From Bacteroidota bacterium (GTDB lineage: Bacteria > Bacteroidota > Ignavibacteria > Kryptoniales > JAKASW01): a DNA stretch of 64,000 nucleotides. Position numbers and translations under genes: made by a program. The stretch spans positions 1-64,000 of the forward strand of contig JAJYIT010000016.1 in the NCBI GenBank assembly GCA_021789975.1, given 5' to 3'. Positions 3,228-51,552 of this stretch are shown here, piece by piece; within the stretch, counting starts at the first letter, position 1; every line of letters starts with the position of its first letter. The notes under the pieces were generated by a model, which saw only the letters and a program-made list of their open reading frames with translations, was not told the DNA's origin and did not search any database.

Positions 3228-3240
3228 TTGGAAGTGTGTC

Positions 3241-34616: not shown

Positions 34617-34646
34617 GGCTGGCCTTCAATTTATTGAAAGCCAGCC
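34617..34646 (-). terminator. Intrinsic terminator of the porin-cytochrome operon
   Basis: Read on the - strand, GGCTGGCTTTCAA and TTGAAGGCCAGCC form a 13-bp stem with one G-U pair and a 4-base loop, followed by GTTTTATG. It lies 54 bases past the stop of the heptaheme lipoprotein gene. Confidence 0.65.
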
Positions 34647-34699
34647 TCCTTGCACTATTTCAAGGGTTCAGCTGCCGCGTCGAAGTATTTCAAAATGAC

Positions 34700-35587
34700 T
34701 TACCAGCTTTCAAGCTGTTTGCCATAAAGCAAAAGTTTGCCGGTTATATGCTGTGTGCTGTCCTGTATTGTCCCATCCGGGCCTATCATCGGAGAGTGAC
34801 AAAGGAAGCAGGTCTGCAGAGTCTGTCCCTGGTGGATCGGCGTGTTAGGTGGAATTCCGTGACACGTTCCGCAGGCTGCCTGGCTCGAACCTCCGTTCCA
34901 TGCAGGTGAGTAATTGTTTCCACCTGTAAAATCTCCGTGACAATAAGTGTTGGAACATTTTAGAGTTTGAGGATCGAACACGGGGGTGGGCTGCACCGTG
35001 ACCTGTGTGCTGTCGTAGAAGCGACTTCCCGGCGTATTAGTCGGCGTAAGTGCGATGGAAGAGAATTCGACAGTTGCAGTCCCGGTCCCGGCAGGGTGTA
35101 TTCCTGGTCCCGCCGCCTGCGGCACAATGTGACACGTCGTGCAACTCACCGGGATCGAAAGGCTGCTGCCGGCAAGGTGTATCTGATGGGCGCCGACTCC
35201 TGGAGCAGAAGTAGCCGTGTCGCCCGAAAGATCCGCGGGCGGAGCCGGGTTCAGTGAGCTGCCGTGGCAAGTGTTGCAGGACAGCGGCCCTTCGGGTCCA
35301 TTGTGACACGAATAGCAGGAGGTCCCCGTAGTGCCGCCCTTCAGGTCCTCGCCGTGACATGTCATGCACGAGGAGAGATCCCATCTGTTTTGTCTCAGGT
35401 AAATACCGTGAAAATTGGGCGAGCTGACCTCTGCCCATCCCGTAGGGTGAAATCCTACCTGATATGTCGTAGGTGCCAGTACGTTATTCTGTAGCTTGCT
35501 GCAAGAGCTAAATGCCAAGCCTATGGTAATGATTGCACCGATAGCTGAGAGTTTATAGCCGATAAATGATATCCTTTTCATGTTCAT
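34700..35587 (-). CDS. Heptaheme outer-membrane lipoprotein cytochrome c
   Basis: The start at 35587 is the ATG in the ATGA overlap with the upstream gene, preceded by GGGGAG. The 295-residue protein has a lipoprotein-like signal (about residues 1-29, ending AFSSC). Seven c-heme sites are visible: CMTCH, CYSCH, CNTCH, CTTCH, then CSNTYCH (four-residue spacing), CGTCH and CFLCH. The CSNTYCH...CGTCHGIPP arrangement is the CxxxxCH...CxxCH domain described in Geobacter multiheme proteins. Its place after a barrel and a periplasmic multiheme gene matches the surface cytochrome of a porin-cytochrome conduit; surface exposure is inferred. Confidence 0.85.
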   Translation of the reverse strand: MNMKRISFIGYKLSAIGAIITIGLAFSSCSKLQNNVLAPTTYQVGFHPTGWAEVSSPNFHGIYLRQNRWDLSSCMTCHGEDLKGGTTGTSCYSCHNGPEGPLSCNTCHGSSLNPAPPADLSGDTATSAPGVGAHQIHLAGSSLSIPVSCTTCHIVPQAAGPGIHPAGTGTATVEFSSIALTPTNTPGSRFYDSTQVTVQPTPVFDPQTLKCSNTYCHGDFTGGNNYSPAWNGGSSQAACGTCHGIPPNTPIHQGQTLQTCFLCHSPMIGPDGTIQDSTQHITGKLLLYGKQLESW

Positions 35588-36867
35588 CTCCCCGGATTGC
35601 TGCCATGGCAATATCCACAGAACCCAACTCCCGGTTTACCTCCCGGGTGAGCGTTGGGATCGGTGTGACAAGTGTAGCATACAGCACCTGGATCAGTGTG
35701 CCAGCTTCCATCAACATCGTGCATAAAGAACGGCGGGTGAGTCCTCGGATCATCGCCCTTTATACCGTCTGGGTCTGTATGGCAGGTAATGCAAACCGGA
35801 TCGGCGCCCTGTACGTCGTGGCAGCTTGCGCAACTCTCGATGTCTCTCCTCGCATATTGGGCATGTCTTCCGCCGCCGCTGCCTACACCTGAGGTCACGA
35901 AATCGCCGCCTAAGTGCCAGATCGGCTCGATCCTTGCTCCGTTAGCCTCAGAATTATGACATTGAACGCAGAAGGTCCTTTCATCGTGGCAGGTATAGCA
36001 ATCGCTCTCTCTTCCCACTGCTGCGACACTGTGTGTGAATCTCCATCCTTCGGGATGGACCCGCTGAATGGTAGTCGTCTTGTGGGTAGTAATCGGGGCA
36101 AGAGAAGGAGTCGATGGGACATAAAGTTGACCAGGAGTCAGATCGTTTGCAAGATTTGAAGCGTCGTGGCATTCCTGGCAGGATGCTGTTGTGTGGCATG
36201 ACTTGCAGCCGTTTTGCGTACCCAACATGTTTGCGAACTTTCCATGTCGTTTGAGGAAATCAGGTTCTTTATGTGACATCGGGACGAGATCAGTAAGGTC
36301 TCTGTGGCAGGCATCGCAGCCAGCCGGAGACGAGACGATGATAGTATCTGCCTTGGCGTCAACCGTGTCCGACTTCGCGATGGTGAAATTTGTTTCGACC
36401 TTCCCGTGGCACACTGTGCATTGTTCCATCTTAGGTAACCCGCCATTGGGTGCCTTTTCAGCATAGGTGACACTGTCAACTCCCTGATGGCAAGTCTCGC
36501 ATGCCAGCTTCAAAGTGCCCGCGTGACGTTTGTGAGAGAAGAAAACCGGGCTGGGTGTTTGAACAAGATCTCTGTAAGTCGTCGAGTCTGCACTGGTGTG
36601 GCAGAAAGTGCACTTGGTCGAAGACTGGTCGTGGCACGTATAGCATGTCTGCATCGTCGGCATCAGGTTGTCGGTAATCTTCGTGCTGGAAGTGACGGTG
36701 GTGTGGCAGTCTGTGCATGCCGCGCCGACATCGTTAATATGTTTTGTGTGTGAGAACTTTATGATGTCCTCATTGGTGAACTTAGCGTGACCTTTTTGCG
36801 CAAATACGTTTGAAACCGAAAGAAGCGCGAGCAGGCCGGCGGTTCCGAATAATCTCAACTTTTTCAT
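35584..36867 (-). CDS. Periplasmic 14-heme c-type cytochrome
   Basis: It starts at 36867 behind GGAGGCGCGG. The 427-residue protein has a cleaved signal peptide (MKKLRLFGTAGLLALLSVSN then VFAQ) and fourteen CxxCH sites: CTDCH, CYTCH, CTFCH, CETCH, CTVCH, CDACH, CKSCH, CQECH, CYTCH, CVQCH, CASCH, CITCH, CYTCH and CGYCH. Many extra His residues (FSHTKH, FFSHKRH) supply distal ligands for bis-His hemes of the c3/c7 type. It has no membrane anchor. It is translationally coupled to the lipoprotein gene downstream and lies 11 bases after the barrel gene. The inferred role is a periplasmic wire within the barrel complex. Confidence 0.88.
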   Translation of the reverse strand: MKKLRLFGTAGLLALLSVSNVFAQKGHAKFTNEDIIKFSHTKHINDVGAACTDCHTTVTSSTKITDNLMPTMQTCYTCHDQSSTKCTFCHTSADSTTYRDLVQTPSPVFFSHKRHAGTLKLACETCHQGVDSVTYAEKAPNGGLPKMEQCTVCHGKVETNFTIAKSDTVDAKADTIIVSSPAGCDACHRDLTDLVPMSHKEPDFLKRHGKFANMLGTQNGCKSCHTTASCQECHDASNLANDLTPGQLYVPSTPSLAPITTHKTTTIQRVHPEGWRFTHSVAAVGRESDCYTCHDERTFCVQCHNSEANGARIEPIWHLGGDFVTSGVGSGGGRHAQYARRDIESCASCHDVQGADPVCITCHTDPDGIKGDDPRTHPPFFMHDVDGSWHTDPGAVCYTCHTDPNAHPGGKPGVGFCGYCHGSNPGR

Positions 36868-36878
36868 CCGCGCCTCCG

Positions 36879-38276
36879 TCAGTTTGAACCGAAATTATTG
36901 AAGAAATAATAGTTAACCAGCAAGTACGCTCTAAAATCATTCTTGTAGACAGGATTCTGATAATACTGTCCCTGCAAATTGATGGAAAGAAGATTTATCG
37001 GACGGTAGGTTACACCAAGCGAGCCGCTGTACAAGTTGCTGGCAGGGAGAGATGTCTCCTGAAGTAGTTTGTAGTTTGTTGCAGAGAGAGACGCCAAAAG
37101 AATTAGTCTCTGACTGAGAAGAGGGTACATGAACTGTGCATTCACTCCATTAAGATTTCCCGCGAAACCGTCGTTGTGTGAAAAATTTAGCGAGAACAGG
37201 TAGATGTTCGCTCCTATTGAAAATTGTGTCGAATTGTCGCCGGTGTAATAAACTTTGCTTAGAGTTCCAAAGACATTGATACGGCGATTGAAAAGGTAAT
37301 TCAAGCTGACGTCATACTCGTCGGTTCCACTGTGGTCGAACACTGAGAAGATGGAGTTGAAGGGAAGCCGTTCTTCCCTGCGGTAGTACTCGACATTTGC
37401 CGCGAGAGAAGTTATGGGAGAATACCTGAAAGAAAGTTCGGTGCGGTCGAAGCTCGCGAAGTTGAGGTCGTAATCGACTCTCGCGTAGCCCGACACTCTG
37501 TCATTGTAATAGAGCACATTTCCGGATACGTACTGTGTGGCTTCTGCGGTGGGGTCTATGTAGACGCTGTCGCCGAAGCCGGGAGTAGTGTGGACGTCGG
37601 TCAGCCTGTATGTATAATAGCCGGGTGGCTTAAAAAGCTTGTTGACATAGGCGCCGCCTATTTTGAAATTGTCGATCGGCGAATAATAAGCTTCGCCTCC
37701 GTAAAGGGAATTCCCTTTGACATCGGAGCTCATTTCAAATCGCTCATCGACCGGGGGCAGGGCGCCGCCGAAAGCAAGCACGGTAACCTTGCCATCGAGA
37801 AGACCCGCTTTTGCACTCAGACCATCGAACGATGAGACTCCAACCTCACTGAATATAGGTTGTCGACCCAATCTTAGATCGAGGACCTTTCCGATGTTGC
37901 GAGCTTCAAAATAGAGATTACCTGCGCGAAGTAGCGGATCGCTCGGAAGCTTGGTGACAAAATCGTTTGTTGCCAGGATATATGTGTGGAGCTGGTAATC
38001 TCCGGATCCGAAATTCAGCTGCATGGCTTCGTAGCCCAGCAGGTTCATCTTCGATGCCCCGGTAGTGTCGTACTGCTGGTAACTGTAGAAACTTGTCATG
38101 AACCTGCCGCTAAGAGACTGCGCGCGGGATTCACCGAAGAGAGCCAGATATAGTCCCACGCAGAGAATCGCAAGCGGGATAGTTTTTGCCTTCGCGCCGA
38201 TTTTCCGCTTCACTTTGCGCGGCACAGTCGACTTTGTGGCCATGGGATTTGTGCCATATGACCCGATTGACTTCAT
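36879..38276 (-). CDS. Outer-membrane beta-barrel, candidate porin of a porin-cytochrome conduit
   Basis: The start at 38276 follows CTGGAGG. A long basic leader precedes a signal segment (IPLAILCVGLYLALFGESRA then QS). The rest of the 465 residues are alternating amphipathic strands (YQLHTYILATNDFV, LDLRLGRQPIF, SGYARVDYDLNFASF, ELSFRYSPITSLAANVEYYR, INLQGQYYQNPVY), consistent with a barrel of 16 or more strands. No similarity to MtrB/PioB can be claimed from reading alone, but the gene heads a unit with a periplasmic and a lipid-anchored multiheme cytochrome, as in Geobacter porin-cytochrome operons. The role as electron-conduit sheath is inferred. Confidence 0.75.
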   Translation of the reverse strand: MKSIGSYGTNPMATKSTVPRKVKRKIGAKAKTIPLAILCVGLYLALFGESRAQSLSGRFMTSFYSYQQYDTTGASKMNLLGYEAMQLNFGSGDYQLHTYILATNDFVTKLPSDPLLRAGNLYFEARNIGKVLDLRLGRQPIFSEVGVSSFDGLSAKAGLLDGKVTVLAFGGALPPVDERFEMSSDVKGNSLYGGEAYYSPIDNFKIGGAYVNKLFKPPGYYTYRLTDVHTTPGFGDSVYIDPTAEATQYVSGNVLYYNDRVSGYARVDYDLNFASFDRTELSFRYSPITSLAANVEYYRREERLPFNSIFSVFDHSGTDEYDVSLNYLFNRRINVFGTLSKVYYTGDNSTQFSIGANIYLFSLNFSHNDGFAGNLNGVNAQFMYPLLSQRLILLASLSATNYKLLQETSLPASNLYSGSLGVTYRPINLLSINLQGQYYQNPVYKNDFRAYLLVNYYFFNNFGSN

Positions 38277-38394: not shown

Positions 38395-38433
38395 CTCCAC
38401 CGCAGTTTCGGTCGGCCGGCAACTGCGGTGGAG
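38395..38433 (-). terminator. Hairpin between the c554-like gene and the barrel operon
   Basis: CTCCACCGCAGTT and AACTGCGGTGGAG form a perfect 13-bp stem with a 13-base loop. On the - strand it is followed by a pyrimidine-rich run (CCCTCTTCCTCGTCTTC). It probably ends or attenuates the upstream cytochrome operon before the porin unit. Confidence 0.65.
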
Positions 38434-38447
38434 TAATTAAAGGTCAA

Positions 38448-38999
38448 TTATTGCTTTGGAACAGGGTGAGCTATCTGTGACCACATGCTCTTGAAATCGA
38501 ACGACTTGAATGTGGGGCTCTTTTTGTTGTGGCACCTTTCGCAGAGCTGTTCCGCGGATCCGTCGCTGACGGAGACAAGGACGAGTCCGTTTGCGACTGC
38601 CTCTTTCTCATTCTTCATTATGTTCATCTTCATGTAGTCGCTGCCCGGTCCGTGACAAGCTTCGCACTGGACGCCATCCTGTTTGTTGAATCTCGGTCCG
38701 ATGAGAGAAGCTTCCACGCCATAAGCGGTCTGGTGGCATTGCAGACATTCCGGGGCCTGATCGGGACTTCCTTTGATCCCTTTCTCCTTCGCAATCTTCA
38801 AAGCCTCCGGGCTGGTCAGGACTTTCATTGCCTGCGAGTGTTTGCTTGCCTGCCACTTCTGAAATTGTTCACCGCTCTTCGGAGTCCTGTGGCACATGGC
38901 ACAGACCTCTGCGCCAACGTACTTGTGACTCGGTGCGGCGGCCATCGAAACTGCAGTCATCATAAACACTGCCATGATGACTAATGCTGCATTCTTCAT
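38448..38999 (-). CDS. Tetraheme cytochrome c554-like protein
   Basis: The start at 38999 (MKNAALVIMAVF) is preceded by GGAGGTAATCAA; the longer frame to 39023 lacks a site. The 183-residue protein has a signal peptide ending MAAAPS. Four heme sites follow: CAMCH, CLQCH, CEACH and CERCH. The context KYVGAEVCAMCH, QKWQASKHSQAM and GVQCEACHGPGSDYM is typical of the cytochrome c554/c-prime family, in which the last two sites flank a 'GxQCExCHGPG' loop. It is probably a periplasmic electron shuttle between the quinol-side complexes and the outer-membrane conduit; that placement is inferred. Confidence 0.88.
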   Translation of the reverse strand: MKNAALVIMAVFMMTAVSMAAAPSHKYVGAEVCAMCHRTPKSGEQFQKWQASKHSQAMKVLTSPEALKIAKEKGIKGSPDQAPECLQCHQTAYGVEASLIGPRFNKQDGVQCEACHGPGSDYMKMNIMKNEKEAVANGLVLVSVSDGSAEQLCERCHNKKSPTFKSFDFKSMWSQIAHPVPKQ

Positions 39000-39068
39000 T
39001 TGATTACCTCCGTTTGATTTCATAAGTATAGTTTTTATTTATGGTTCATTTGCTACTTCTGGTATCAC

Positions 39069-39437
39069 TCAGTTCTTCCTGGCACACGCGTCGCAGTAAG
39101 TGCGAGTGGGGGTCTTCTCTAATTGTTCCAGTCCTATGAAATTCGAACAGCTCTCGCAGAAGCCGAACGTATCGTTTCTTAACCTGCCGAGAGCGAGCTC
39201 CAATTCTTTTAGCTCAGTCTCGTGTTTCCGTGCCATTTCACACCTGTAATCGGGTTCAGCTTCGCATCGTTTGAATTTCAGGTCACACGTGCTGCAGATG
39301 TACCTCTCGCCGCTTTCGAGGTCGACGACTTCATCCGGTCGATCGTGCATAACCTCAAGTAGAGAGTTTAGCTTTCTTTGCAGAACAGACTCAAGTCGTG
39401 CCTTTAACTGGCTATTGATCTCGGCTTTCCTTTTCAT
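39069..39437 (-). CDS. DksA/TraR-type zinc-finger protein within the cytochrome operon
   Basis: The start at 39437 (MKRKAEINSQL) sits behind CAGGAGGATACGAC. The 122-residue protein has a coiled-coil-like helical N terminus and a C-terminal four-cysteine finger of the DksA/TraR type (CESCSNFIGLEQLEKTPTRT then YCDAC). An unusual second Cys group lies in the middle (CSTCDLKFKRC ... YRC). DksA-type proteins act through the secondary channel of RNA polymerase. The extra cysteines could bind a second metal or sense redox state. It lies inside an operon of multiheme cytochromes, so a dedicated regulatory role is inferred. Confidence 0.75.
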   Translation of the reverse strand: MKRKAEINSQLKARLESVLQRKLNSLLEVMHDRPDEVVDLESGERYICSTCDLKFKRCEAEPDYRCEMARKHETELKELELALGRLRNDTFGFCESCSNFIGLEQLEKTPTRTYCDACARKN

Positions 39438-39480
39438 GTCGTATCCTCCTGATAAAGCTGATGGCTTTTCCATTATCATC

Positions 39481-41469
39481 CTAAGGCATGCTTCTCTGAG
39501 ACATTTGCGTGGTGGTGCTATCGGGGTTGACCCTGAGACCCGCTATAAAGGCAAAGATCCTTCGCGCCAGACTCTGCGAATATGGGAAGTTGTGGGCGCC
39601 CATCGACCCTTCCTCTTGGAATTTTCCTAAATCTGTCTCAATGGATTTGAGCGAGTCTAGCCCTCCTTCTGAATGCGTTGCTTCATAATATGCAACCATT
39701 TGGGGAAAAATTCGATTCCACCGAGCAATCACGCTTTCAATTCTCGCCTTTTGATCACTGAATTTCTTCACTGCCGGACCACTATGACAGTTGGAGCATG
39801 CCTGTGCAGCAGGTATCGTCGGATAATTTCCTTCCGCTAGGTGACAGTCCGAGCAGGCAATACCGGATGCCGACATTGAGTCAGGCGAGGCGGCAAGAAC
39901 CTTCCCGTTGTAAAAGTTAGCCTGTAAGCTGTGGCAGGTTTCGCACTTCTGATTCTTGCTCCGATGATGACAATTTGTGCAGGAGCTGGCGGCGCTTGTC
40001 AACTTGCCGTGGATCGATGAAGATGGCCCGACATTCAGGTGACAGTCCACGCAGGTCCTTGCAAACAGGTGGGGACCGTGAGGAAAAGTCTCACCGTTTA
40101 CATTGACGCTGACGTTCTCTATTCCGAAATGACACCTCAGACACTCAGAATTTCTCTCGTAGAGAGACTCGACCCCGGGATTCTTGTGAGCTACTTTCAG
40201 CTCTTTCTCAGATTCATCCAGAACTAAATTCACATATCGGTTGTTGTGGACCCCGAAGCTTCCATCCCTGATGACAAGCTGCAGGTTTTTGTCCTGTGGA
40301 GGCTCTTTTCCTGTAAACAAATACTCTTTTGATCGCGCAAGTTCGATATTGATGATCCGCGTCTTTACATTTTCCTGCCACATTTTCACCAGCGCGTCGT
40401 ACTTCCTATCATGGCACGAGATGCAGGTCGAGAAGGGTGGGACTTCTCCGGTCCGCATTGATCCTGACAGAATCCCGCCAACTCCGGCAACGCCATTTCC
40501 TCCAGGCATCGAGCTATGGCATCCTTCGCATGTCACATCTGACAGGAACATCGGATCCGGGATCACGGGGACATCTATTCCGCCGGACCCCGAAAAGACC
40601 ATCTCCTGAACACTATGATGGTTCCCGTGACATTGCTGGCAATCGGGAGAGAAGACATCATACATCTGAATCTTCCCATGTTTGATCTCTCCATGACACT
40701 TGAAACACTTGATGTCATTCCTGCCGACATGCTCGTCGTGGATGGTTTTCATGTCTGGAAAAGTATCTGCAACGCTTACATGGCACTCCAAACATTTGTC
40801 TCTTGTAACACTTGCTGTGCCTGATGTGACGTGCAAATGACATGTCTGACAACTCACTCCACTCTTCAGGTACTTGGAATGATTGAAAGGCGTGTCCCAC
40901 ACATAGATATCGTTCTTCGGCGGACCATGGCACGTGTTGCATCCGCCGATCGGTCCCCCTCGCATGTCGGCACCTGCAAAGTGGCACAGGATACAGATTT
41001 TGGTCGAAACTCCACCGTGTTTGCCCTGCACTAATTCTGAATGGCAAGTCTGACACTTGAAAGAGAAATTGACATTGGTCTTGGATAGGTGGACCTTGTG
41101 GCTGAAGGAGATCCTGCCATTGTCGAATTTGATCGTCTTGTAGAAGTCTCGCGTTTTGTGGCATTGAAGACAAGCGCCATCGTTTATCTTGGACGTGATT
41201 TCTGGAGAGTAGGCGCCGATGTAGTAACGGAAAATTTCAGATGCTAGTCTCAATTTCCCCTGCAGGTAGTTCCCGACGCCGGGTGCGTAATGACATTTCC
41301 CACACGGCACCTGGTTGTGCGATGATGTCAGCCAATTGTTGTAGTACTGCTCCATGTAGTGACATGAAGCGCAGAACTTCGGATCGTCGGAAGCTCTCAA
41401 AAAGAGGACGAAGCCGTATACGATGAGGAGAGGCAGGGCGATGGCTATCGCACGCCTGAACTTTTTCAT
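39481..41469 (-). CDS. 18-heme membrane-anchored cytochrome c (NapC/NirT-like N terminus)
   Basis: This 662-residue protein begins with a basic stretch and one uncleaved helix (IAIALPLLIVYGFVLFL). It then has FCASCHYMEQYYNNWLTSSH and VPCGKCHYAPG, the pattern of NapC/NirT quinol dehydrogenases. Eighteen CxxCH sites are visible in all: CASCH, CGKCH, CLQCH, CQTCH, CILCH, CNTCH, CQTCH, CLECH, CFKCH, CQQCH, CEGCH, CISCH, CLRCH, CVDCH, CTNCH, CETCH, CSDCH and CSNCH. The C-terminal 100 residues are helical without hemes. Its start overlaps the cytochrome b gene by four bases. It is probably a periplasmic relay tied to the inner membrane. Confidence 0.88.
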   Translation of the reverse strand: MKKFRRAIAIALPLLIVYGFVLFLRASDDPKFCASCHYMEQYYNNWLTSSHNQVPCGKCHYAPGVGNYLQGKLRLASEIFRYYIGAYSPEITSKINDGACLQCHKTRDFYKTIKFDNGRISFSHKVHLSKTNVNFSFKCQTCHSELVQGKHGGVSTKICILCHFAGADMRGGPIGGCNTCHGPPKNDIYVWDTPFNHSKYLKSGVSCQTCHLHVTSGTASVTRDKCLECHVSVADTFPDMKTIHDEHVGRNDIKCFKCHGEIKHGKIQMYDVFSPDCQQCHGNHHSVQEMVFSGSGGIDVPVIPDPMFLSDVTCEGCHSSMPGGNGVAGVGGILSGSMRTGEVPPFSTCISCHDRKYDALVKMWQENVKTRIINIELARSKEYLFTGKEPPQDKNLQLVIRDGSFGVHNNRYVNLVLDESEKELKVAHKNPGVESLYERNSECLRCHFGIENVSVNVNGETFPHGPHLFARTCVDCHLNVGPSSSIHGKLTSAASSCTNCHHRSKNQKCETCHSLQANFYNGKVLAASPDSMSASGIACSDCHLAEGNYPTIPAAQACSNCHSGPAVKKFSDQKARIESVIARWNRIFPQMVAYYEATHSEGGLDSLKSIETDLGKFQEEGSMGAHNFPYSQSLARRIFAFIAGLRVNPDSTTTQMSQRSMP

Positions 41470-42368
41470 CTTGGCACGTCCTTCTTTCGTTGCGCCTCGG
41501 TTTTAGTGATCATCTGCTCATATTCGAGCGGGTGATCCTTGATCATCTTCTCCTTTGAAATGTTCCCGGTGAATATTGTCGGGTTAAAAGGGAAGACCTC
41601 GGGATTGAAATGTACGTTGTACCAGTGCCACACTACGATTGCGAGGGTCGCAAGCATCGCCTCATCGGAGTGGACCTCCGTAGCAATGTCGAACATGAAC
41701 TTCGGGACGATGCCCAGGAAGAAGTTGTTGAACCAGAGGAGCAAACCCGATAGGATCATGATGACCATGCCCCAGTAAACCGCCCAGTAATCGAACTTCT
41801 CAACGTATGAGAATCTGCCGTACCTCGGCTTCTGTTTCGAGAGTCCAAGCAGGTACTTGATGTTCTGCACGAAATCTTTCAAGTCTTTCGGAGTCGGCAG
41901 CAGCTGCTTGAAATCGTTTCTTCCCGTCCTGGTGGCGGTGATGAACAGCACGTGCCAGACGGAGACGATGATCAGAAGTGTCGCTCCAACTCTGTGGATG
42001 ACTCTGGAGACCGCTATTCCCCCCGTCATCTCGAAAAATATTTTTGCCACCAGTGTATCATGGAACTTTATCGGAAGTCCGGTGATAATCAGAATTAACA
42101 CCCCGACGGCGAGCGTCAAATGCTGGAGTCTGAAATTTAGTCCGAACCGGAGGAAATACTCTCTCCTGGACTTCTCTTCTTTCCGAACTCTTTCTTCCTC
42201 CTGCCTACGTTTGTCTTCAACATGCTGCCGGATCCTCTCGACGAGCTCGCCTTTGAGCACAGCTCTGAATTTCTCGTCGAGTTCGACCTTCTCTTCTTTC
42301 AAGAGTTCACCGATCATTTTGTCGGCGGCGTAGTCTAACCTTGCGTCGGCTTTATTCATGCCTTGCAT
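41466..42368 (-). CDS. Membrane cytochrome b subunit, partner of the 9-heme cytochrome
   Basis: The 300-residue protein has a charged helical N-terminal region of about 70 residues, then four hydrophobic helices. Heme b ligand candidates are RLQHLTLAVG, VIHRVGATLL, SVWHVLFI and WHWYNVHFNP. The layout is that of the diheme cytochrome b of formate dehydrogenase/Ni-Fe hydrogenase (FdnI/HydC) type, which exchanges electrons with quinone. It overlaps the 9-heme gene upstream and the 18-heme gene downstream, so the three are translationally linked. The start could be 42368 or 42359. Confidence 0.85.
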   Translation of the reverse strand: MQGMNKADARLDYAADKMIGELLKEEKVELDEKFRAVLKGELVERIRQHVEDKRRQEEERVRKEEKSRREYFLRFGLNFRLQHLTLAVGVLILIITGLPIKFHDTLVAKIFFEMTGGIAVSRVIHRVGATLLIIVSVWHVLFITATRTGRNDFKQLLPTPKDLKDFVQNIKYLLGLSKQKPRYGRFSYVEKFDYWAVYWGMVIMILSGLLLWFNNFFLGIVPKFMFDIATEVHSDEAMLATLAIVVWHWYNVHFNPEVFPFNPTIFTGNISKEKMIKDHPLEYEQMITKTEAQRKKDVPR

Positions 42369-43383
42369 GCTTTCGTCTTATGAATCCTGAAAGATCGAGC
42401 GCTATGTGTGCAAAAAGGAAAACCAGCACTGCCAATGTGAACCACTTGAAAAAAGTATAGACATAGAACACAATCCCAGCGCTTCTTTCGCTCGGTATAA
42501 TGTGGACTTTTCCCTTTGCAACGTTCTTATCTGCGTGCGGGTGGCATTTACCGCATGTTTTCGGAAGATTCTTCGGATTGATAGGAGAATTCGGATCACT
42601 CGCCGGAAGTATGTCGTGGTGACCATGACACGATGTACAATTCGCCGCTTTGACCATCCCGTTTTCAAGGGCAATTCCGTGGAAACTCTCGCTGTATGCT
42701 TCCGGTTGTTGAACAGGTACGTCAGCCCTTGCCATCAGCAGGGTGTCGGCGTGGCACTTCGCGCATGTGCGGACGACACCTTCGGCACTCAGCGCCGACC
42801 TCGGGTCGCTCGGCGGAAGTACGTCGTGTTCCTGATGGCAATCAGTACAAACCGCGGCACCGAGCATTCCGTTCTCCAATGCCTTGTAATGAATAGACTT
42901 GCTGTACGATTCGAATTGTTTGATGTGGCAGCGGCCGCAGAGATCCGGGATATTTCTGCGATTCGTCTGTGAAGTCGAGTCGGACGGGCTCTTCACGTAA
43001 TGAGTCGTGTGGCACGTCTCGCAATCCGGGGCATTTGGATTGCCTTCAGCCAACGCCTTTGCATGAATACTATCTTTGTATTTCTCAGGCATCCATTTTA
43101 CAGGAGCACCCACAGTGTTCCCTTCGAAGTGGCACTGGAGACAACTGACTTTCTGGGGTCTGATGAAGTGGGGAATGACTTTGACGTCTGTGTGGCACTG
43201 CACGCACGTGAATTTCCCGTGGATAGACGCTGAGAATTGCTTCGGCGAGACGTAAAGAGATTGGAACTTCCCGTCCTCCATCACGCCGAAATCCTTTTTC
43301 CCGTGGCATAGGAAACAGCGTGTGTTCTGGGGCGACGAGCCGATTTGGAGGAAAGCGAGGAGGATAGTCAATAGCGCCGTCAT
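42352..43383 (-). CDS. Nine-heme c-type cytochrome with C-terminal membrane anchor
   Basis: The start at 43383 (MTALLTILLAFLQ) follows AGGAGGATTAAT. Nine CxxCH sites are present: CFLCH, CVQCH, CLQCH, CETCH, CGRCH, CTDCH, CAKCH, CTSCH and CGKCH. Repeated spacers such as YSKSIHYKALENGM, YSESFHGIALENGM and HDVLPPSDPRS are shared with the 19-heme fusion protein. A C-terminal helix (FFKWFTLAVLVFLFAHIAL) matches the linker helix that joins the c and b parts in that fusion. Together with the overlapping cytochrome b gene it is an unfused copy of the same c/b design. Confidence 0.88.
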   Translation of the reverse strand: MTALLTILLAFLQIGSSPQNTRCFLCHGKKDFGVMEDGKFQSLYVSPKQFSASIHGKFTCVQCHTDVKVIPHFIRPQKVSCLQCHFEGNTVGAPVKWMPEKYKDSIHAKALAEGNPNAPDCETCHTTHYVKSPSDSTSQTNRRNIPDLCGRCHIKQFESYSKSIHYKALENGMLGAAVCTDCHQEHDVLPPSDPRSALSAEGVVRTCAKCHADTLLMARADVPVQQPEAYSESFHGIALENGMVKAANCTSCHGHHDILPASDPNSPINPKNLPKTCGKCHPHADKNVAKGKVHIIPSERSAGIVFYVYTFFKWFTLAVLVFLFAHIALDLSGFIRRKHARHE

Positions 43384-43384
43384 A

Positions 43385-44086
43385 TTAATCCTCCTTTCCC
43401 TCCGCATGTTTTGCCTCCGAGTCTCTTATCATCGACTCATATTCCAGAAAGTGGTTCTCCTTCATCCATTTCACGGACACGTATCCGTGCCAGAAAGACG
43501 AGTTGGCCGGGAAATTTGCGGGAGATAGGTGGACAACATACATGTGCCACAATACCAGGAACAGAATAACGAGCGTGGCCGTACCCCCATGCAAGGCAAA
43601 CGAAACGTCGAAAGCCCATTTCGGCAGGAATGCGAAAAAGAAATCATGGAACCACATGACCATGCCGGATAGGAACATTAGAAGAATGAACACGAAGAAA
43701 GCCCAGTACTGGATTTTTTCGCGGTAGGAGTATCGTCCAAAGGCAGGTCTTTCTGCCCGTTTCATGAGGTCGTACAGGATGCTATTCTTCAGATCGACGA
43801 GATCGTTCCGGATCGGCAGGAGGCTTTTGAATTCTCGCTTCCCTTCTCTCGTGAAGGAGATGTAGATGAGGTGGTAAATCGCCGTAGCGAAAAGAAGTAC
43901 TGCCGACAATCGATGAAGCGCACCTCTTGCCTGAAAACCTCCTTCCAGGAATATCAGGATCTTTCCCCAAAGAGTCTCGGAATATTTCATGGAGAATCCG
44001 GAAATCACCAGCAGCAGAACGCTAACCATGAGGAGCATGTGCTGCACGCGCCAGCTCCGAGAGAAACGCGGTATCTTATCGTTCAT
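43385..44086 (-). CDS. Membrane cytochrome b subunit
   Basis: The 233-residue protein has four transmembrane helices and His positions like the other two b domains: WRVQHMLLMVSV, ALHRLSAVLL, AIYHLIYI and LWHMYVVHLSP. It lacks the charged N-terminal extension of the 300-residue relative. It lies between the 19-heme c/b fusion and the 9-heme cytochrome, with only one base separating its stop from the next start codon. It is probably a FdnI/HydC-type diheme quinone-reactive subunit; which c-type partner it uses is unknown. Confidence 0.83.
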   Translation of the reverse strand: MNDKIPRFSRSWRVQHMLLMVSVLLLVISGFSMKYSETLWGKILIFLEGGFQARGALHRLSAVLLFATAIYHLIYISFTREGKREFKSLLPIRNDLVDLKNSILYDLMKRAERPAFGRYSYREKIQYWAFFVFILLMFLSGMVMWFHDFFFAFLPKWAFDVSFALHGGTATLVILFLVLWHMYVVHLSPANFPANSSFWHGYVSVKWMKENHFLEYESMIRDSEAKHAEGKED

Positions 44087-44104: not shown

Positions 44105-46768
44105 CTATTTCTGATTTTCGTCTCCATTCTGTACCACTATCTCGCCCTTTTGTGCCTCCCTGAGTTTCTCCAGCTCCAGAGGATGCTCTTCCTCCATTTC
44201 CTCTTCACTCAGGGTGCCTGTGATGCATGAGACGTTCAGGGGATAAATGTCGGGGTTGAAAATGACTGCATAAAAATGCCAGACGAGTATCGCAAGACTG
44301 GCAAGTATTGCTTCATAATAGTGGATCAGGATTGCTGCGTCCATGCCAAGCAGGGTTATCAAGCCCAGGGAAAAAGTATTGAACCACATCAATAGCCCGG
44401 TAACTGCCATCACAGCGGTCCCCCATATCAGGGCCCAGTATTCTGCCTTCTCTGCATAAGTGAAGCGCCCAAATAGTGGCCGCTCCCGGCTCAGGCCAAG
44501 GTTGTACTTGATCGCTGCCGCGGCATCTTTCGCATCCTGAATCTTTGGTGCCATATCCTTCATAAACTGCCTGCCTCGCTCCGTGAATGTCACGTAGTAG
44601 ATATGGTAGAGTGCATCGGCAATCATTACAGACCCCGCAATTCTATGGATCAAGCCGCGGAGATTTGCAAAATCGTTTCCGGCAAGATCCCTTACGAGCG
44701 TCACCCACCAGGAATCAGGGAACTTGAGCATAAACCCTGTGAGAACTAAAGTCAGGAAGCTCAGGAGAAGCAAAAGGTGCTGTATCCGCTCGCCCACTGT
44801 CATACGGACGTAAAGCTTCCTGCCCGACCTGGCAGGATAAATCCCGTCCCTTCTTCCTCGGAGTTTTCTCCTCGACTTGGCTACGAAATCGACGATGTTG
44901 TGCAAGAGCATCATGCCGATTATCGAGATGATGAGAACAACATAGACCTGAGAGAGCCAATAGAGAAGCGGTTCCCGCCCCGAAGTGGGGACAACGTGAA
45001 TCGGTGTAGATGCAAAACGGATTGTGGCGCCCTTATGGCACCTTCCGCAGGTCTTCGCAAGGTTAGCTTTGTTTATGGAAGACAGGGGATTGGAAGAGGG
45101 AAGTATTTCATGGGCGCCGTGGCAACTCGCACAGTTCGCAGCGGTTGTCGAACCTTCTCGTACTGCCAATCCATGGTAGCTGTCCATGTAGCTGCCCACT
45201 CTATCGGAAGGCATCCCATATCTTTCTGTCAGCCTGACCGATGAGTGACATTTCGAACATGAGACAGCGATGTTTGTCGAGTAAACGGTAGATTCCTGAT
45301 TGCCGGGAGAGAGAATCTGGTGGTCTCCGTGACAGGTAGTGCAAACCGGAGCGTTGTTGTTTCCCGACTGCAGCGCCTGCCCATGTATGCCCTTAAAATA
45401 TTTTGCAGCGACATTCTCATGGCACCCGGCTTGGCCACAAGTATTGGGAATATTGTTCCTGAATACTTTGGACTTGGGGTTTCCTGGAGGAAGCATATCG
45501 TGTGCCCCGTGACAGTCGCTGCATGTGGCTGCTCTCAAGTCTCCCTTGGACAACGCAACAAAATGGACGCTGTGCTTCAGACTTTCAAAAAAAGCCGAAG
45601 ACATACCCACCATCTTGAGAACGGTCTTGTTATCCAGATGACACTTCAGGCAAATCTTAGGTTCGTTCTGTCTGCTTACGGGCGAGTTTTGATTGCTGAT
45701 TGATTCGATACTGTGTTCTTCATGACAATCTGTGCAAACAGGAGCTACACTCAGGCCCTTTTTGTATGCCAATCCGTGAGACGATCCCAGGTAGTGTTCC
45801 TTGACATCCGCATGACACTTCCCGCATGTCGCAACTATGTTGGACCTGCTTACCGGAGAAGATGGATCACTCGCCGGCAGGATCGTGTGCGACCCGTGAC
45901 AATCCACACACGTAGCGCCTTTGCCATTCTTCTTAAGCGACTCTGCATGAATGCTGTGCTGGTATTGCTGTACGAGTGACGTGAGGGCGGTGCCATTCTC
46001 CGACTTCACGCCATCAAACAGCTTGGTGTTAGAGTGACACTTATAGCAGCCGTTCTGAGATATCGCTTGTTTCGACAATTCCGCCGAGTGGGCTGTGTGA
46101 CAGGATACGCAGGTAAGCCTTCCTTCTGCGAAAGGTTTTGCATGGATACCGAGGTTTATTTGGCCGACAATTCCTTGGTGACATTGTGAGCAGAGCGAGT
46201 CTATCTCGACGCCCCGCAGAGATGACGCTACGGTCTTAACATCATGTGCTTTCTGGTGACACGTCTGACAAGTGAATGCCTTGTGGCCAAGAGTAGCTTT
46301 CCTATGCGCAGATGTCAGGAAAGTATTCTGGGCCGGGTGGCAGGATATACATTTATTGACGACTTGTATCTTCGCGGCAGGCTGGATACCGTGTGTGCCG
46401 TGGCAATCCCAACACTTGAGAGAGGAGTGGGCTAGATGGTATTCGGATCCTTTTGGTGAGTGGAGGTGGACGTCGTGGCACTGGTTGCAATCAACGTTTG
46501 GAGTAGTCTGCTTATGCGGGACATCATTAGCATCAAATCCCTGGTGGCAATCAACGCACGCGAGGCCGGCGCTACCATGGACCGATGAACTGAACTGCTT
46601 CTGGCTTACGTAAAGGCTCACAGTCTTGCCGTTCACCTGCATAGTCAGAGTCGAGTCGGAGTGGCAGGTCAGGCAGTCATCGTTCGAAGTAGTTTGTGCC
46701 CGGGTTCCTTGAGCAACGATTACACTTAAGACTAAAATTATGAAGAAGAAAGCAACACGTTTTTTCAT
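44105..46768 (-). CDS. CbcL-like fusion: 19-heme c-type domain plus b-type membrane domain
   Basis: The start at 46768 (MKKRVAFFFIILVLSVIVAQ) gives a proper signal peptide; the frame is open to 46798. The 887-residue protein has nineteen c-heme sites in its first 600 residues: eighteen CxxCH plus one CGQAGCH with four-residue spacing. Then comes a linker helix (VYVVLIISIIGMMLLHNIV) and a b-type domain with ERIQHLLLLLSF, LIHRIAGSVMIAD, LYHIYYVTF and LVWHFYAVIFNP. The c-then-b architecture matches CbcL of Geobacter, an inner-membrane quinol oxidase used for low-potential extracellular acceptors, though CbcL has fewer c hemes. Quinol oxidation on the periplasmic side is inferred. Confidence 0.85.
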   Translation of the reverse strand: MKKRVAFFFIILVLSVIVAQGTRAQTTSNDDCLTCHSDSTLTMQVNGKTVSLYVSQKQFSSSVHGSAGLACVDCHQGFDANDVPHKQTTPNVDCNQCHDVHLHSPKGSEYHLAHSSLKCWDCHGTHGIQPAAKIQVVNKCISCHPAQNTFLTSAHRKATLGHKAFTCQTCHQKAHDVKTVASSLRGVEIDSLCSQCHQGIVGQINLGIHAKPFAEGRLTCVSCHTAHSAELSKQAISQNGCYKCHSNTKLFDGVKSENGTALTSLVQQYQHSIHAESLKKNGKGATCVDCHGSHTILPASDPSSPVSRSNIVATCGKCHADVKEHYLGSSHGLAYKKGLSVAPVCTDCHEEHSIESISNQNSPVSRQNEPKICLKCHLDNKTVLKMVGMSSAFFESLKHSVHFVALSKGDLRAATCSDCHGAHDMLPPGNPKSKVFRNNIPNTCGQAGCHENVAAKYFKGIHGQALQSGNNNAPVCTTCHGDHQILSPGNQESTVYSTNIAVSCSKCHSSVRLTERYGMPSDRVGSYMDSYHGLAVREGSTTAANCASCHGAHEILPSSNPLSSINKANLAKTCGRCHKGATIRFASTPIHVVPTSGREPLLYWLSQVYVVLIISIIGMMLLHNIVDFVAKSRRKLRGRRDGIYPARSGRKLYVRMTVGERIQHLLLLLSFLTLVLTGFMLKFPDSWWVTLVRDLAGNDFANLRGLIHRIAGSVMIADALYHIYYVTFTERGRQFMKDMAPKIQDAKDAAAAIKYNLGLSRERPLFGRFTYAEKAEYWALIWGTAVMAVTGLLMWFNTFSLGLITLLGMDAAILIHYYEAILASLAILVWHFYAVIFNPDIYPLNVSCITGTLSEEEMEEEHPLELEKLREAQKGEIVVQNGDENQK

Positions 46769-46778
46769 TCGGTAGAAT

Positions 46779-47081
46779 TCAAGGTAGCGTTTTATCATTC
46801 ATGGCTGATTCACAAGACAGACAAAGCCTTGCGGTGGGGTTCAACTTCAAAATGTCCGGTTGGATGTCATGCCTGCAAATAACGCATTGTCCGTATACAC
46901 CTTTCTCAATCCTGCGTAAAGCGAATACCAACTCGTTTATTTCCGAAGTATCGAGCTTCGATGCAGCGGCGAGAATCTCTCCTCGATTACCATCAACTTC
47001 CTGGTCGAACTTGCTTTTCAGAAGCTCTCTCATCTTTGCCACTACGAGCTCATCATATTTGGACATTTCATCCCACTTCAT
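46779..47081 (-). CDS. Small DksA/TraR-type zinc-finger protein, first gene of the cytochrome operon
   Basis: The 100-residue protein has a helical N terminus (KYDELVVAKMRELLKSKF, then EINELVFALRRIEKGVYG) and a degenerate four-cysteine finger (CVICRHDI ... CLSC), with the typical IEKGxYGxC approach. Its 3' end overlaps the open frame of the 19-heme gene, so the two are linked. The start could be 47081 or the ATG at 47066. It is the second DksA/TraR-type protein in this cluster. A role coupling cytochrome expression to a cellular signal is inferred. Confidence 0.75.
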   Translation of the reverse strand: MKWDEMSKYDELVVAKMRELLKSKFDQEVDGNRGEILAAASKLDTSEINELVFALRRIEKGVYGQCVICRHDIQPDILKLNPTARLCLSCESAMNDKTLP

Positions 47082-48334: not shown

Positions 48335-50242
48335 ATGTTCAGTACGCTTAGAGCCAAGGTAGCCGCGGGCTTCACGGTTCTCGTGATCATAAATATTATT
48401 GTCAGCGCGTGGTCGATCTATAATTTCAACCAACTGACACAGGCCGTCTCGACGATGGCCCGCCAGAACTACCAGAACATCGTAGCCACACAGAACATGG
48501 TCGTTACCCTGGAGAGGGACAACAGTGCTCAACTCCAGATGCTTAACGGCTATGTCGAGTCGGGGTACCAAAGATTCGTGGACGACAGCACGGACTTTTT
48601 CATATATTACGGTCAGGCATTGGTGTCGAACGCTTCGGATCAAGGCGCCGAAATCCTTAGAGAGATAAAAAGTACATACGGTAAGTATTCGGAAGCAACA
48701 GCAATCTTCAGGGAGATACTAAAAACAAAAGGCTACATAGCTTACGGCCGGAGTTTCCACTTCAACAAGATCCTTCCGCTCTTCGACAAGATCAAAGGCG
48801 AGTGCTTTCAGCTCTTCGACATAAACAACAATTCTATGTCACGCACCGTCATCCAAGCGGGGGAAATATCCAATCGAGCAACCGTTGCAGTCGTCGGAGC
48901 CGCGATCCTTGCCATAGTGCTCAGTATTATTGCCAGCTGGCAGTTTTCCCAGTACATACTCGAGCCGGCAGAGAAACTGACCAGCACAGTCAGGAAGATT
49001 GCGCGCGGATACCTCGATGTGAAAGCAGACATCGATTCAAATGATGAGATAGGCGAGCTGAGTCGCGAATTCAACAGGATGACCGAACGGCTCAGGAAGT
49101 ACGAAGAAATCAATATCGGGAAGTTGATATTCGAGAAGAGAAAATCAGAAGCAATAGTCGGGACTATATCCGATCCTATCGTGGTTGTCGACCGCGAAGG
49201 AAAGATCGTATTGATGAACCAACTTGCCGAGAATATTTTCAACGTAACGGAGGATGCGGCGATTGGTCGCGACTTTCAAGAAGTGGTACAAAACAAGGAG
49301 CTTACAAAATATCTCTCCGGGTATCTTCGGGAGGAGAGTTCCGTGAATATCCCGCCGTATTTTGAGCTGCCGTTCGACGGCGAAAACCGATACTTCAGAA
49401 TACGACTGAATTCATCCAGAGATCAATCGGGAAGGTTGACCGGCGTTGTCCTCATCCTTCAGGACGTCACACAGTTCAAGGAGCTGGACAAACTTAAGTC
49501 GGAATTCATGGCTCGCGTTTCACATGAGTTCAGGACACCGCTGACCTCTATAAACATGACGCTGGACATACTTAAAGACGAGCACATGGGGCACGTCAAC
49601 AGGAAGCAAAGGGAGCTTTTGGTTGCTGCGAAGCAGGACGCCGAGCGGCTGACGAAACTTGTTCGCGAGTTGCTTGAGTTGTCGAGGCTTGAATCTGGCA
49701 AGATTCAACTGAAAGAAGACAGAATCGATACAAAGTCTCTGGTAGATTTTGCATTGCAGCCTGCGCTGCTTCAATTTAAGGACAAAAAGGTGAGCCTGAC
49801 TGTAAACGTCGATCCGTCGATCCCCGAGTTCGTTGCTGATTTCCAACAACTCTCGTGGGTGATTTCAAACCTTGTTACCAACGCACTGAGATTTACCGAT
49901 TGTGGTGGAACGGTGACCGTAGATGCGACGACCAATGGCGAGGATCTAATAATGTCTATCCGCGATACAGGCTGCGGAATCGAGCCTGAAGAGTTGGGGA
50001 AGATATTTGATAAGTTCGTTCAATTGCGCGATTCAATATCTCCTTCTCCCGGATCGGTCGGACTTGGACTGGCTATAGCAAAGGAGATTGTCGAGTTCTT
50101 TGGAGGACGGATCTTGGTCGACAGCGAAGTAGGTGTCGGAACCGTCTTCACTTTTTCGTTGCCGATAAAGGACAGGTTGACTCATGGGACATCATCTGTG
50201 ACCCATCCGAGTGCGGAGACTGTGACGGAGCACGCCGCATGA
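48335..50242 (+). CDS. Membrane sensor histidine kinase (HAMP-PAS-HisKA-HATPase)
   Basis: The 635-residue protein has two membrane helices (about residues 10-30 and 180-205) flanking a helical periplasmic sensor resembling the four-helix type. HAMP (VRKIARGYLDVKADIDSNDE) and a PAS domain (SDPIVVVDREGKIVLMNQLA) follow. The kinase core has the H box SHEFRTPLTS, N box VISNLVTNALRF, G1 DTGCGIEPEE and G2 VGLGLAIAKEI. It autophosphorylates the H-box His and passes phosphate to the response regulator encoded by the overlapping gene. The four-base overlap (ATGA) indicates coupled expression. The signal is unknown; a redox or electron-acceptor cue is inferred only from the nearby cytochrome cluster. 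Confidence 0.93.
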   Translation: MFSTLRAKVAAGFTVLVIINIIVSAWSIYNFNQLTQAVSTMARQNYQNIVATQNMVVTLERDNSAQLQMLNGYVESGYQRFVDDSTDFFIYYGQALVSNASDQGAEILREIKSTYGKYSEATAIFREILKTKGYIAYGRSFHFNKILPLFDKIKGECFQLFDINNNSMSRTVIQAGEISNRATVAVVGAAILAIVLSIIASWQFSQYILEPAEKLTSTVRKIARGYLDVKADIDSNDEIGELSREFNRMTERLRKYEEINIGKLIFEKRKSEAIVGTISDPIVVVDREGKIVLMNQLAENIFNVTEDAAIGRDFQEVVQNKELTKYLSGYLREESSVNIPPYFELPFDGENRYFRIRLNSSRDQSGRLTGVVLILQDVTQFKELDKLKSEFMARVSHEFRTPLTSINMTLDILKDEHMGHVNRKQRELLVAAKQDAERLTKLVRELLELSRLESGKIQLKEDRIDTKSLVDFALQPALLQFKDKKVSLTVNVDPSIPEFVADFQQLSWVISNLVTNALRFTDCGGTVTVDATTNGEDLIMSIRDTGCGIEPEELGKIFDKFVQLRDSISPSPGSVGLGLAIAKEIVEFFGGRILVDSEVGVGTVFTFSLPIKDRLTHGTSSVTHPSAETVTEHAA

Positions 50243-51552
50243 AAGCAAACGTACTCCTTGTCGACGACGAGCAAAACATACTTCGAACCATGAAGATATG
50301 CCTGGAGTCAATCGGCCTCGACGTCACTGCAGTTTCGAAACCCGACGACGCACTAAAGGCTGCGGGGCAGACTCAGTACGACATCGCTTTCTTCGATCTG
50401 AAAATGTACCCCATCGATGGGCTCCAACTTCTCACGGAAGTGAAGAAGCTGAAGCCGGATATTATTGTGGTTATAGTAACTGCCCACGGTTCGGTAGATA
50501 CGGCAGTCAAGGCAATTAAGCAGGGAGCATATGACTACCTGCAGAAGCCTTTCGACTTCCAGGAGCTTCAACACTTCGCACAAAAAGTGTATGATCATTT
50601 CAAGCTCCAAAAAGAGTTGAAGAACTTACAGGAGCAACTCTACAGGTACGAGGCAGCGGAGGACATAATAACTAACGATTCCCGGATGGTGTCTCTTCAG
50701 AACCTTGCTAGAGAAGTGGCCGAGACGAACATAAGCGTGTTGATTCAAGGCGAAAGCGGAACCGGCAAAGAATTGTTTGCGAGATATATACACCGCCTCA
50801 GTCCCAGGAACGGCGGACCTTTCATGACGGTGAACTGCGCTGCGCTCTCAGAGAGCCTGCTGGAAAGCGAACTCTTCGGCCATGTGAAAGGCGCATTCAC
50901 CGGCGCTGTCCGTGACAGGCAGGGGCGCTTCGAGGCAGCCGAAGGTGGTACGGTCTTCCTCGATGAAATTTCTGAGATACCGACGACGACGCAGGCAAAA
51001 CTGCTGAGGTTTTTGCAGAGTAGAGAATTTGAGAGGGTTGGAGACACTCAGACTCTAAAGGTTGATGTCAGATTCATCGCCGCCACGAATCGGGACATAA
51101 AGCAGGAGCTGGCTTCCGGCAAATTCAGAGACGATTTGTACTATAGAATCAATGGCGTGACAATTAGTCTGCCGCCCCTCAGAAATCGGCCGGACGATAT
51201 TCCCCTATTGATCAAACATTTCATAAAAAAATTCTCTCCCGATACTCCGCCGGAGATAGATGCAGATGCCTTCAGTCTCCTCACCAACTACAGATGGCCC
51301 GGTAATGTCCGCCAGCTTGAGAACGTGATTGAAAGGGGAGTGCTCCTCGCCCACGGTCGGAAAATAGAAGCGTATCACTTGCCCGATGAGATACAGAATC
51401 AAGAATCGAAACGCCTCGTATCGCTGGAGCACCTTGAGAAAGAACATATAGCGCGCGTAATAAACGAAACCTCGACAGTTGAGGAAGCCTCTTCAATTCT
51501 TGGAATAGATCCCGCAACTCTGTGGCGGAAAAGGAAGAAGTACGGACTATAA
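50239..51552 (+). CDS. Sigma-54-dependent response regulator (NtrC family)
   Basis: The 437-residue protein has a receiver (LVDDEQN, phosphoacceptor D53 in FFDLKMYPIDG, VTAHGS, YLQKPF). A central AAA+ domain follows with Walker A GESGTGKE, the sigma-54 contact loop GAFTGA, Walker B TVFLDEISEI, and R-finger region NYRWPGNVRQLENV. A Fis-type helix-turn-helix ends the protein (VEEASSILGIDPATLWRKRK). It should open sigma-54 promoters when phosphorylated by the kinase encoded just upstream. The target genes are unknown; the nearest candidate element is at 47212. Confidence 0.95.
   Translation: MKANVLLVDDEQNILRTMKICLESIGLDVTAVSKPDDALKAAGQTQYDIAFFDLKMYPIDGLQLLTEVKKLKPDIIVVIVTAHGSVDTAVKAIKQGAYDYLQKPFDFQELQHFAQKVYDHFKLQKELKNLQEQLYRYEAAEDIITNDSRMVSLQNLAREVAETNISVLIQGESGTGKELFARYIHRLSPRNGGPFMTVNCAALSESLLESELFGHVKGAFTGAVRDRQGRFEAAEGGTVFLDEISEIPTTTQAKLLRFLQSREFERVGDTQTLKVDVRFIAATNRDIKQELASGKFRDDLYYRINGVTISLPPLRNRPDDIPLLIKHFIKKFSPDTPPEIDADAFSLLTNYRWPGNVRQLENVIERGVLLAHGRKIEAYHLPDEIQNQESKRLVSLEHLEKEHIARVINETSTVEEASSILGIDPATLWRKRKKYGL

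What the first reader, a model, noticed from the sequence alone, without database searches (positions are those of the whole stretch)
34617..38276. Candidate complete porin-cytochrome conduit: barrel, 14-heme periplasmic and 7-heme lipoprotein genes
Three co-directed genes with 11 bases and then a 4-base overlap between them, framed by hairpins at 38395 and 34617, encode an outer-membrane barrel, a soluble 14-heme cytochrome, and a lipid-anchored heptaheme cytochrome. This is the part list of Mtr/Omb-Oma-Omc conduits that carry electrons across the outer membrane. The barrel is not obviously one of the known porin families, so it may be a new conduit type in an FCB bacterium. Barrel and surface roles are inferred from pattern and order.
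Basis: partly seen in the sequence, partly recalled or inferred. Interest (0 to 1): 0.8.

Follow-up and report, generated by a model that had tools for sequence, protein, structure and literature searches.

The report
Ignavibacterial porin-cytochrome outer-membrane electron conduit
These genes almost certainly build a protein wire that carries respiratory electrons out through the cell's outer membrane, but the same gene set is shared across the bacterium's whole class and was already described in a cultured relative in 2014, so this is a well-formed example of something known.

Summary
Three co-directed genes lie at 34700-38276(-): a 465-aa secreted protein predicted to be a beta-barrel, a soluble cytochrome with 14 CXXCH motifs, and a lipoprotein cytochrome with 6 CXXCH plus 1 CX4CH. 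The 11-base gap, 4-base overlap and both hairpins are real. The barrel is followed by an 11-14-heme cytochrome in 63 of 63 relatives examined. The lipoprotein cytochrome comes next in 61; the other two contigs end first. A tetraheme cytochrome usually precedes, and upstream lie CbcL-like and NapC-like quinol-oxidising cytochromes. The best reading is a complete porin-cytochrome (Pcc) conduit for extracellular respiration, probably of Fe(III) or similar acceptors.

It is not a new conduit type. Shi et al. 2014 (PMC4245776) described the same layout in Ignavibacterium album: porin IALB_1839, a 400-aa 14-heme cytochrome IALB_1838, and an outer-membrane cytochrome with an atypical heme motif, IALB_1837. 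The porin has no Pfam/NCBIfam model and is not MtrB/PioB. Strand prediction gives about 19-23 strands, near the Pcc range. AlphaFold models failed (pLDDT 36 and 33), so barrel fold and insertion of the cytochrome remain inferred.

The parts
36879..38276 (-). Porin-like outer-membrane protein (Pcc porin, ortholog of the Ignavibacterium/Melioribacter type), 465 aa, signal peptide to about residue 52
   Evidence: no Cys in the mature part; about 19-23 predicted amphipathic strands against 7-15 after column shuffling at the same penalties; no TM helix in the mature part; homologs in 69 of 100 relatives
35584..36867 (-). Periplasmic/transmembrane-wire multiheme cytochrome c, 427 aa, 14 CXXCH, Sec signal peptide
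   Evidence: all 14 CXXCH conserved in 10 genus sequences; class-wide homologs of 11, 12 or 14 hemes; part of the N-terminal half matches ActA-like pentaheme cytochromes in the PDB
34700..35587 (-). Lipid-anchored outer-membrane multiheme cytochrome, 295 aa, 6 CXXCH + 1 CX4CH, lipobox FSSC
   Evidence: present right after the 14-heme gene in 61 of 63 loci; lipobox found by pattern in 46 of 61, and in most of the remainder by eye
38448..39023 (-). Tetraheme cytochrome c554-like, 191 aa, likely periplasmic carrier feeding the conduit
   Evidence: PF13435 E=2.3e-19; found directly before the porin in most relatives; position matches IALB_1840
39069..39479 (-). DksA/TraR-type C4 zinc-finger protein, kept at this place within the genus
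   Evidence: PF01258 E=1.9e-4, just below the curated cut-off
39481..41469 (-). Membrane-anchored 18-heme cytochrome with NapC/NrfH-like N-terminus (candidate quinol dehydrogenase)
   Evidence: PF03264 E=1.3e-9, TIGR03153 E=8.5e-16, 18 CXXCH
41466..42368 (-). b-type cytochrome (Ni_hydr_CYTB / FdnI-like)
   Evidence: PF01292 E=1.1e-14
42352..43407 (-). 9-heme cytochrome with C-terminal TM anchor
43385..44086 (-). b-type cytochrome
   Evidence: PF01292 E=1.7e-16
44105..46798 (-). CbcL/MtrH/MtoC-like fusion: 18 CXXCH domain + C-terminal cytochrome b; candidate inner-membrane quinol oxidase
   Evidence: PF01292 at 665-849 plus multiheme N-terminus; architecture as reviewed in PMC6295460
48335..51552 (+). 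Divergent histidine kinase and NtrC-type response regulator, probable regulators of the cluster
   Evidence: kinase; the pair is kept divergent next to the cluster across the genus; NtrC-type assignment by inspection of the sequence
38395..38433 (-). 13-bp perfect hairpin between the tetraheme gene and the porin gene
   Evidence: not conserved in sequence in the genus
34617..34646 (-). Terminator-like hairpin after the lipoprotein gene
   Evidence: sequence

Best explanation
A complete Pcc-type trans-outer-membrane electron conduit of the Ignavibacteria kind. Quinol in the inner membrane is oxidised by the CbcL-like and/or NapC-like/cyt b membrane cytochromes. Electrons pass through the periplasm, probably via the tetraheme c554-like protein, to the 14-heme cytochrome, which sits in or against a roughly 20-stranded barrel made by the 465-aa protein. 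They leave through the lipid-anchored 7-heme cytochrome to an extracellular acceptor such as Fe(III) oxide. Shown here: the genes, heme motifs, signal peptide and lipobox patterns, operon order and its conservation. Inferred: barrel fold, insertion of the cytochrome, surface exposure, electron direction and acceptor.
For: Gene anatomy. Conserved porin -> 11-14-heme -> lipoprotein-cytochrome order in 63 of 63 and 61 of 63 loci, in 8 further same-class genomes and in one genome of another class. Porin and 14-heme pairwise distances correlate best of the pairs tested, r=0.904, though shared phylogeny alone would give much of this. Strand prediction 19-23, within or close to the published Pcc range of 18-22. 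CbcL-like and NapC-like partners upstream. One genome with the cluster has chromosome length 3,300,414 bp, exactly that published for Melioribacter roseus, which is reported to reduce Fe(III) and to carry a Pcc porin. Two other complete genomes (L108, L109) have the tetraheme - 421-aa porin - exactly 400-aa 14-heme - 6+1-heme order, matching the published IALB_1840-1837.
Against: No significant profile match to MtrB/PioB or any solved barrel. AlphaFold models of the porin and the 14-heme protein were useless (mean pLDDT 36 and 33). No co-complex could be run. No functional data for this organism. Electron direction cannot be read from CbcL-like proteins, which occur in both Fe(III) reducers and Fe(II) oxidisers.
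Confidence: 0.88

Rival explanations
1. Same conduit run inward: an Mto/Pio-like electron-uptake path that takes electrons from extracellular Fe(II) and reduces quinone.
For: CbcL/MtoC homologs are known in Fe(II) oxidisers. Same-genus MAGs in the collection carry isolate names from several sites that may be mine-impacted sediments (my reading of the names, not tested).
Against: A lipoprotein terminal cytochrome is present, as in reducing Pcc/Mtr systems; Mto/Pio-type clusters usually lack one (general knowledge). The Melioribacter-matching relative with the cluster is reported as an Fe(III) reducer. No MtrB/PioB homolog in the genome.
Confidence: 0.08
2. The barrel is an ordinary solute porin that happens to sit in a cytochrome operon, and the 14-heme protein is a purely periplasmic carrier, for example for a soluble reductase.
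For: Barrel fold and complex formation are not demonstrated; weak Porin_4 and BBP2_2 matches in some relatives; part of the 14-heme N-terminal half resembles ActA-type periplasmic pentahemes.
Against: The porin is followed by this cytochrome in 63 of 63 neighbourhoods and most genomes hold a single copy. No reductase catalytic subunit was seen in the operon.
Confidence: 0.04

Closest known systems
Ignavibacterium album Pcc cluster IALB_1840-1837 (Shi et al. 2014, PMC4245776)
   Same: Periplasmic cytochrome, porin, 14-heme cytochrome (400 aa there, 427 here) and outer-membrane cytochrome with an atypical heme motif. Near relatives L108/L109 reproduce the 400 aa / 14 heme figure exactly.
   Different: Only about 34% porin identity between the window and those relatives. 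The window adds a DksA-like gene and a NapC/cyt b/9-heme inner-membrane cassette. The IALB sequences themselves could not be fetched.
Geobacter OmbB-OmaB-OmcB and other Pcc conduits
   Same: Porin, periplasmic multiheme and outer-membrane lipoprotein multiheme genes in one cluster; porin smaller than MtrB; atypical heme motifs in the outer-membrane cytochrome.
   Different: OmaB has 8 hemes and OmcB 12, against 14 and 7 here. Sequence relation to OmbB not tested here; PMC7399161 reports OmbB-like HMM hits in Ignavibacteria.
Shewanella MtrCAB / MtoAB / PioAB
   Same: Works alike: a cytochrome wire through a barrel plus, in Mtr, a lipoprotein cytochrome outside.
   Different: MtrB/PioB porins carry 28 predicted strands and match PF11854; the porin here does not. 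MtrA has 10 hemes.
CbcL / MtrH / MtoC family
   Same: 44105-46798 has an N-terminal multiheme part and a C-terminal cytochrome b.
   Different: 18 hemes against 9 in G. sulfurreducens CbcL; the known range is 3-23.

Membership tests
Pcc (porin-cytochrome) gene cluster | Porin-like outer-membrane protein gene adjacent to a periplasmic multiheme c-cytochrome gene (published range 5-14 hemes) | tested here: met
Pcc (porin-cytochrome) gene cluster | Outer-membrane multiheme c-cytochrome in the cluster, often with atypical heme motifs | tested here: met
   lipobox FSSC, 6 CXXCH + CX4CH; lipid anchor by motif, outer-membrane location inferred
Pcc (porin-cytochrome) gene cluster | Porin with about 18-22 transmembrane strands | tested here: inconclusive
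   19-23 by a home-made amphipathicity scan with approximate propensities, 22 at the middle setting against 11 +/- 2 shuffled; AlphaFold model unusable
Pcc (porin-cytochrome) gene cluster | Sequence homology of the porin to OmbB or IALB_1839 | not tested
   Those sequences could not be fetched; link rests on matching anatomy, the Melioribacter chromosome-length match and published HMM results
[quoted passage not shown]
   Needs biochemistry or co-complex prediction
MtrB/PioB porins (PF11854) | Significant match to the family profile | tested here: not met
   35 homologs, none at E<=1; no match anywhere in the own genome
CbcL/MtrH/MtoC | N-terminal multiheme c domain fused to a C-terminal HydC/FdnI-like cytochrome b | tested here: met
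   for 44105-46798

The most novel reading that the evidence does not exclude
The Ignavibacteria porin is a conduit barrel family of independent origin from OmbB, Ext and MtrB porins, matched to an unusually long 14-heme wire with an ActA-like N-terminal part. It would be the main outer-membrane electron exit of this class and of some neighbouring Bacteroidota.
Probability: 0.25. Interest if true: 0.45.

Novelty: new member of a known kind. Interest (0 to 1): 0.27.

Why it matters
It shows that a full Pcc-type conduit is near-core equipment across a whole class (porin in 69 of 100 relatives; the 14-heme partner in 210 of 391 class genomes at E<=1e-60), including a poorly known uncultured lineage. 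It also points to a porin family with no Pfam or NCBIfam profile, so annotation pipelines that rely on those models probably miss it. A profile built from the 35-sequence alignment would fix that.

Tried and rejected
The deeper 35-sequence alignment holds loci from the genome search/get_from_genomes, which that rule does not list, so it was not sent. PDB profile search with the porin: only a chance triosephosphate isomerase match (E=1.6). MtrB_PioB in the own genome: none. A sigma-54 promoter scan was uninformative, 69 matches against 54 expected. The I. album genome itself was not identified among the held genomes: G203, G300 and G642 have other chromosome lengths than the one I recall for it, and its genome paper is not in the library. 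The hairpin at 38395 was considered as a conserved regulatory element and rejected as not conserved in sequence.

Full report
1. Observation. Searches confirm the three genes and their spacing: barrel candidate 36879-38276(-), 14-heme 35584-36867(-), lipoprotein cytochrome 34700-35587(-). Between the first two are 11 bases; the second and third overlap by ATGA. The 14-heme protein has exactly 14 CXXCH. The lipoprotein has 6 CXXCH and one CX4CH, so 'heptaheme' assumes that the atypical motif binds heme. Both hairpins exist: 38395-38433 (perfect 13-bp stem) and 34617-34646 (14-bp stem with one G-U pair, followed by GTTTTA). The first has no counterpart in sequence in the genus.

2. Wider anatomy. 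On the same strand upstream lie a tetraheme c554-like gene, a DksA/TraR-like zinc-finger gene, an 18-heme NapC/NrfH-like membrane cytochrome, two b-type cytochromes, a 9-heme membrane cytochrome and an 18-heme/cyt b fusion of CbcL type. A divergent histidine kinase/NtrC-type pair follows at 48335-51552 and is kept there in the genus. Together this is a path from quinol to the cell surface.

3. The porin. No Pfam or NCBIfam match for the window protein at E<=1. Among 35 homologs only weak, inconsistent hits to generic barrel models occur. The mature part has no Cys, no hydrophobic helix and 9% Tyr. A profile-based amphipathicity scan gives 19-23 strands over the middle and upper penalties (24 at the laxest), against about 7-15 for shuffled columns at the same penalties (18 at the laxest). 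This scan uses approximate propensities and is an indication, not a structure. Shi et al. 2014 report 18-22 strands for Pcc porins and 28 for MtrB-type porins. AlphaFold2 with ten sequences failed for both the porin and the 14-heme protein.

4. Conservation. The porin is found in 69 of 100 relatives. In a 395-genome sample of the phylum, 57 strong matches all lie in the same class. One genome of another class (G206, L113) has the whole order: tetraheme, porin (profile E=8.5e-28), 12-heme, lipoprotein cytochrome. In 63 of 63 neighbourhoods from distinct relatives, the porin is followed on the same strand by an 11- (10 loci), 12- (11) or 14-heme (42) cytochrome, mostly within 45 bases. The lipoprotein cytochrome follows in 61; the other two contigs end first. 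The tetraheme gene precedes in most. Ten further genomes were then inspected: 8 same-class genomes and G206 show the order; G268, a marginal E=4.4e-4 match, shows nothing there and is taken as chance.

5. Known or new. Shi et al. 2014 (PMC4245776) list I. album IALB_1839 (porin), IALB_1838 (400 aa, 14 hemes, the largest Pcc periplasmic cytochrome then known), IALB_1837 (outer-membrane cytochrome with atypical motif) and IALB_1840 (periplasmic cytochrome). They place its porin and periplasmic cytochrome outside their five phylogenetic groups. Complete genomes G203 and G300 (L108, L109) show tetraheme - 421-aa porin - 400-aa 14-heme - 6+1-heme lipoprotein cytochrome, all matching the window genes. 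Genome G255 has the same cluster (L110) and a chromosome of 3,300,414 bp, the exact published length of Melioribacter roseus (PMC3534657). M. roseus is described as Fe(III)-reducing with a Pcc porin. So the thing belongs to a described kind. The step from window porin to IALB_1839 itself is by matching anatomy and near relatives, not by direct alignment.

6. Mechanism. Quinol oxidation by the CbcL-like and/or NapC/cyt b modules; periplasmic relay, probably through the tetraheme protein; passage through the porin by the 14-heme protein; exit by the lipoprotein cytochrome. The last two steps and the direction are inferred from the Mtr/Pcc precedent. Part of the 14-heme N-terminal half (about residues 40-165) matches ActA-like pentaheme cytochromes of known structure (E down to 1.5e-12), which could suit it as the periplasmic docking end; this is inference.

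7. Verdict. New member of a known kind, low to moderate interest.

Noticed in passing
window 39481-44086; L033, L036-L039, L060, L061: Within the genus the outer conduit is constant while the inner-membrane module varies: the cytb / 9-heme / cytb / 18-heme NapC-like cassette is present in the window, L031, L032, L034 (cut by the contig end) and L062 but absent in L033, L036-L039, L060 and L061, where the CbcL-like gene runs straight into the DksA-like gene. L035 (G004) lacks this cassette too but has a different upstream 19-heme/cyt b module.
   Followed up: partly
window 39069-39479: A DksA/TraR-type zinc-finger gene sits inside the cytochrome operon and is kept there across the genus; why a transcription-regulator-like protein belongs in the conduit operon is unexplained.
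   Followed up: no
window 48335-51552: A histidine kinase and an NtrC-type response regulator lie divergent to the operon throughout the genus; no clear sigma-54 site was found above background.
   Followed up: partly
L033 / L067 (genome G007): The lipoprotein cytochrome reads as two overlapping ORFs (4 and 2+1 hemes), so it is probably frameshifted or misassembled in this genome.
   Followed up: no
L113 (genome G206, another class of the phylum): A distant copy of the whole cluster (tetraheme, 488-aa porin, 12-heme, 8+3-heme lipoprotein) next to CbcL-like genes outside the class; possibly transferred or ancestral.
   Followed up: partly
window 35584-36867, residues 40-165 of the protein: The N-terminal half contains a stretch that matches ActA-type pentaheme cytochromes of alternative complex III by profile (PDB 8k9e, 6lod, 6f0k, 6btm).
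   Followed up: partly
window 3211-5472, 8704-10386, 58276-60510: Type IX secretion features elsewhere in the window: two proteins with Por_Secre_tail sorting domains and a PorZ-like beta-propeller protein.
   Followed up: no
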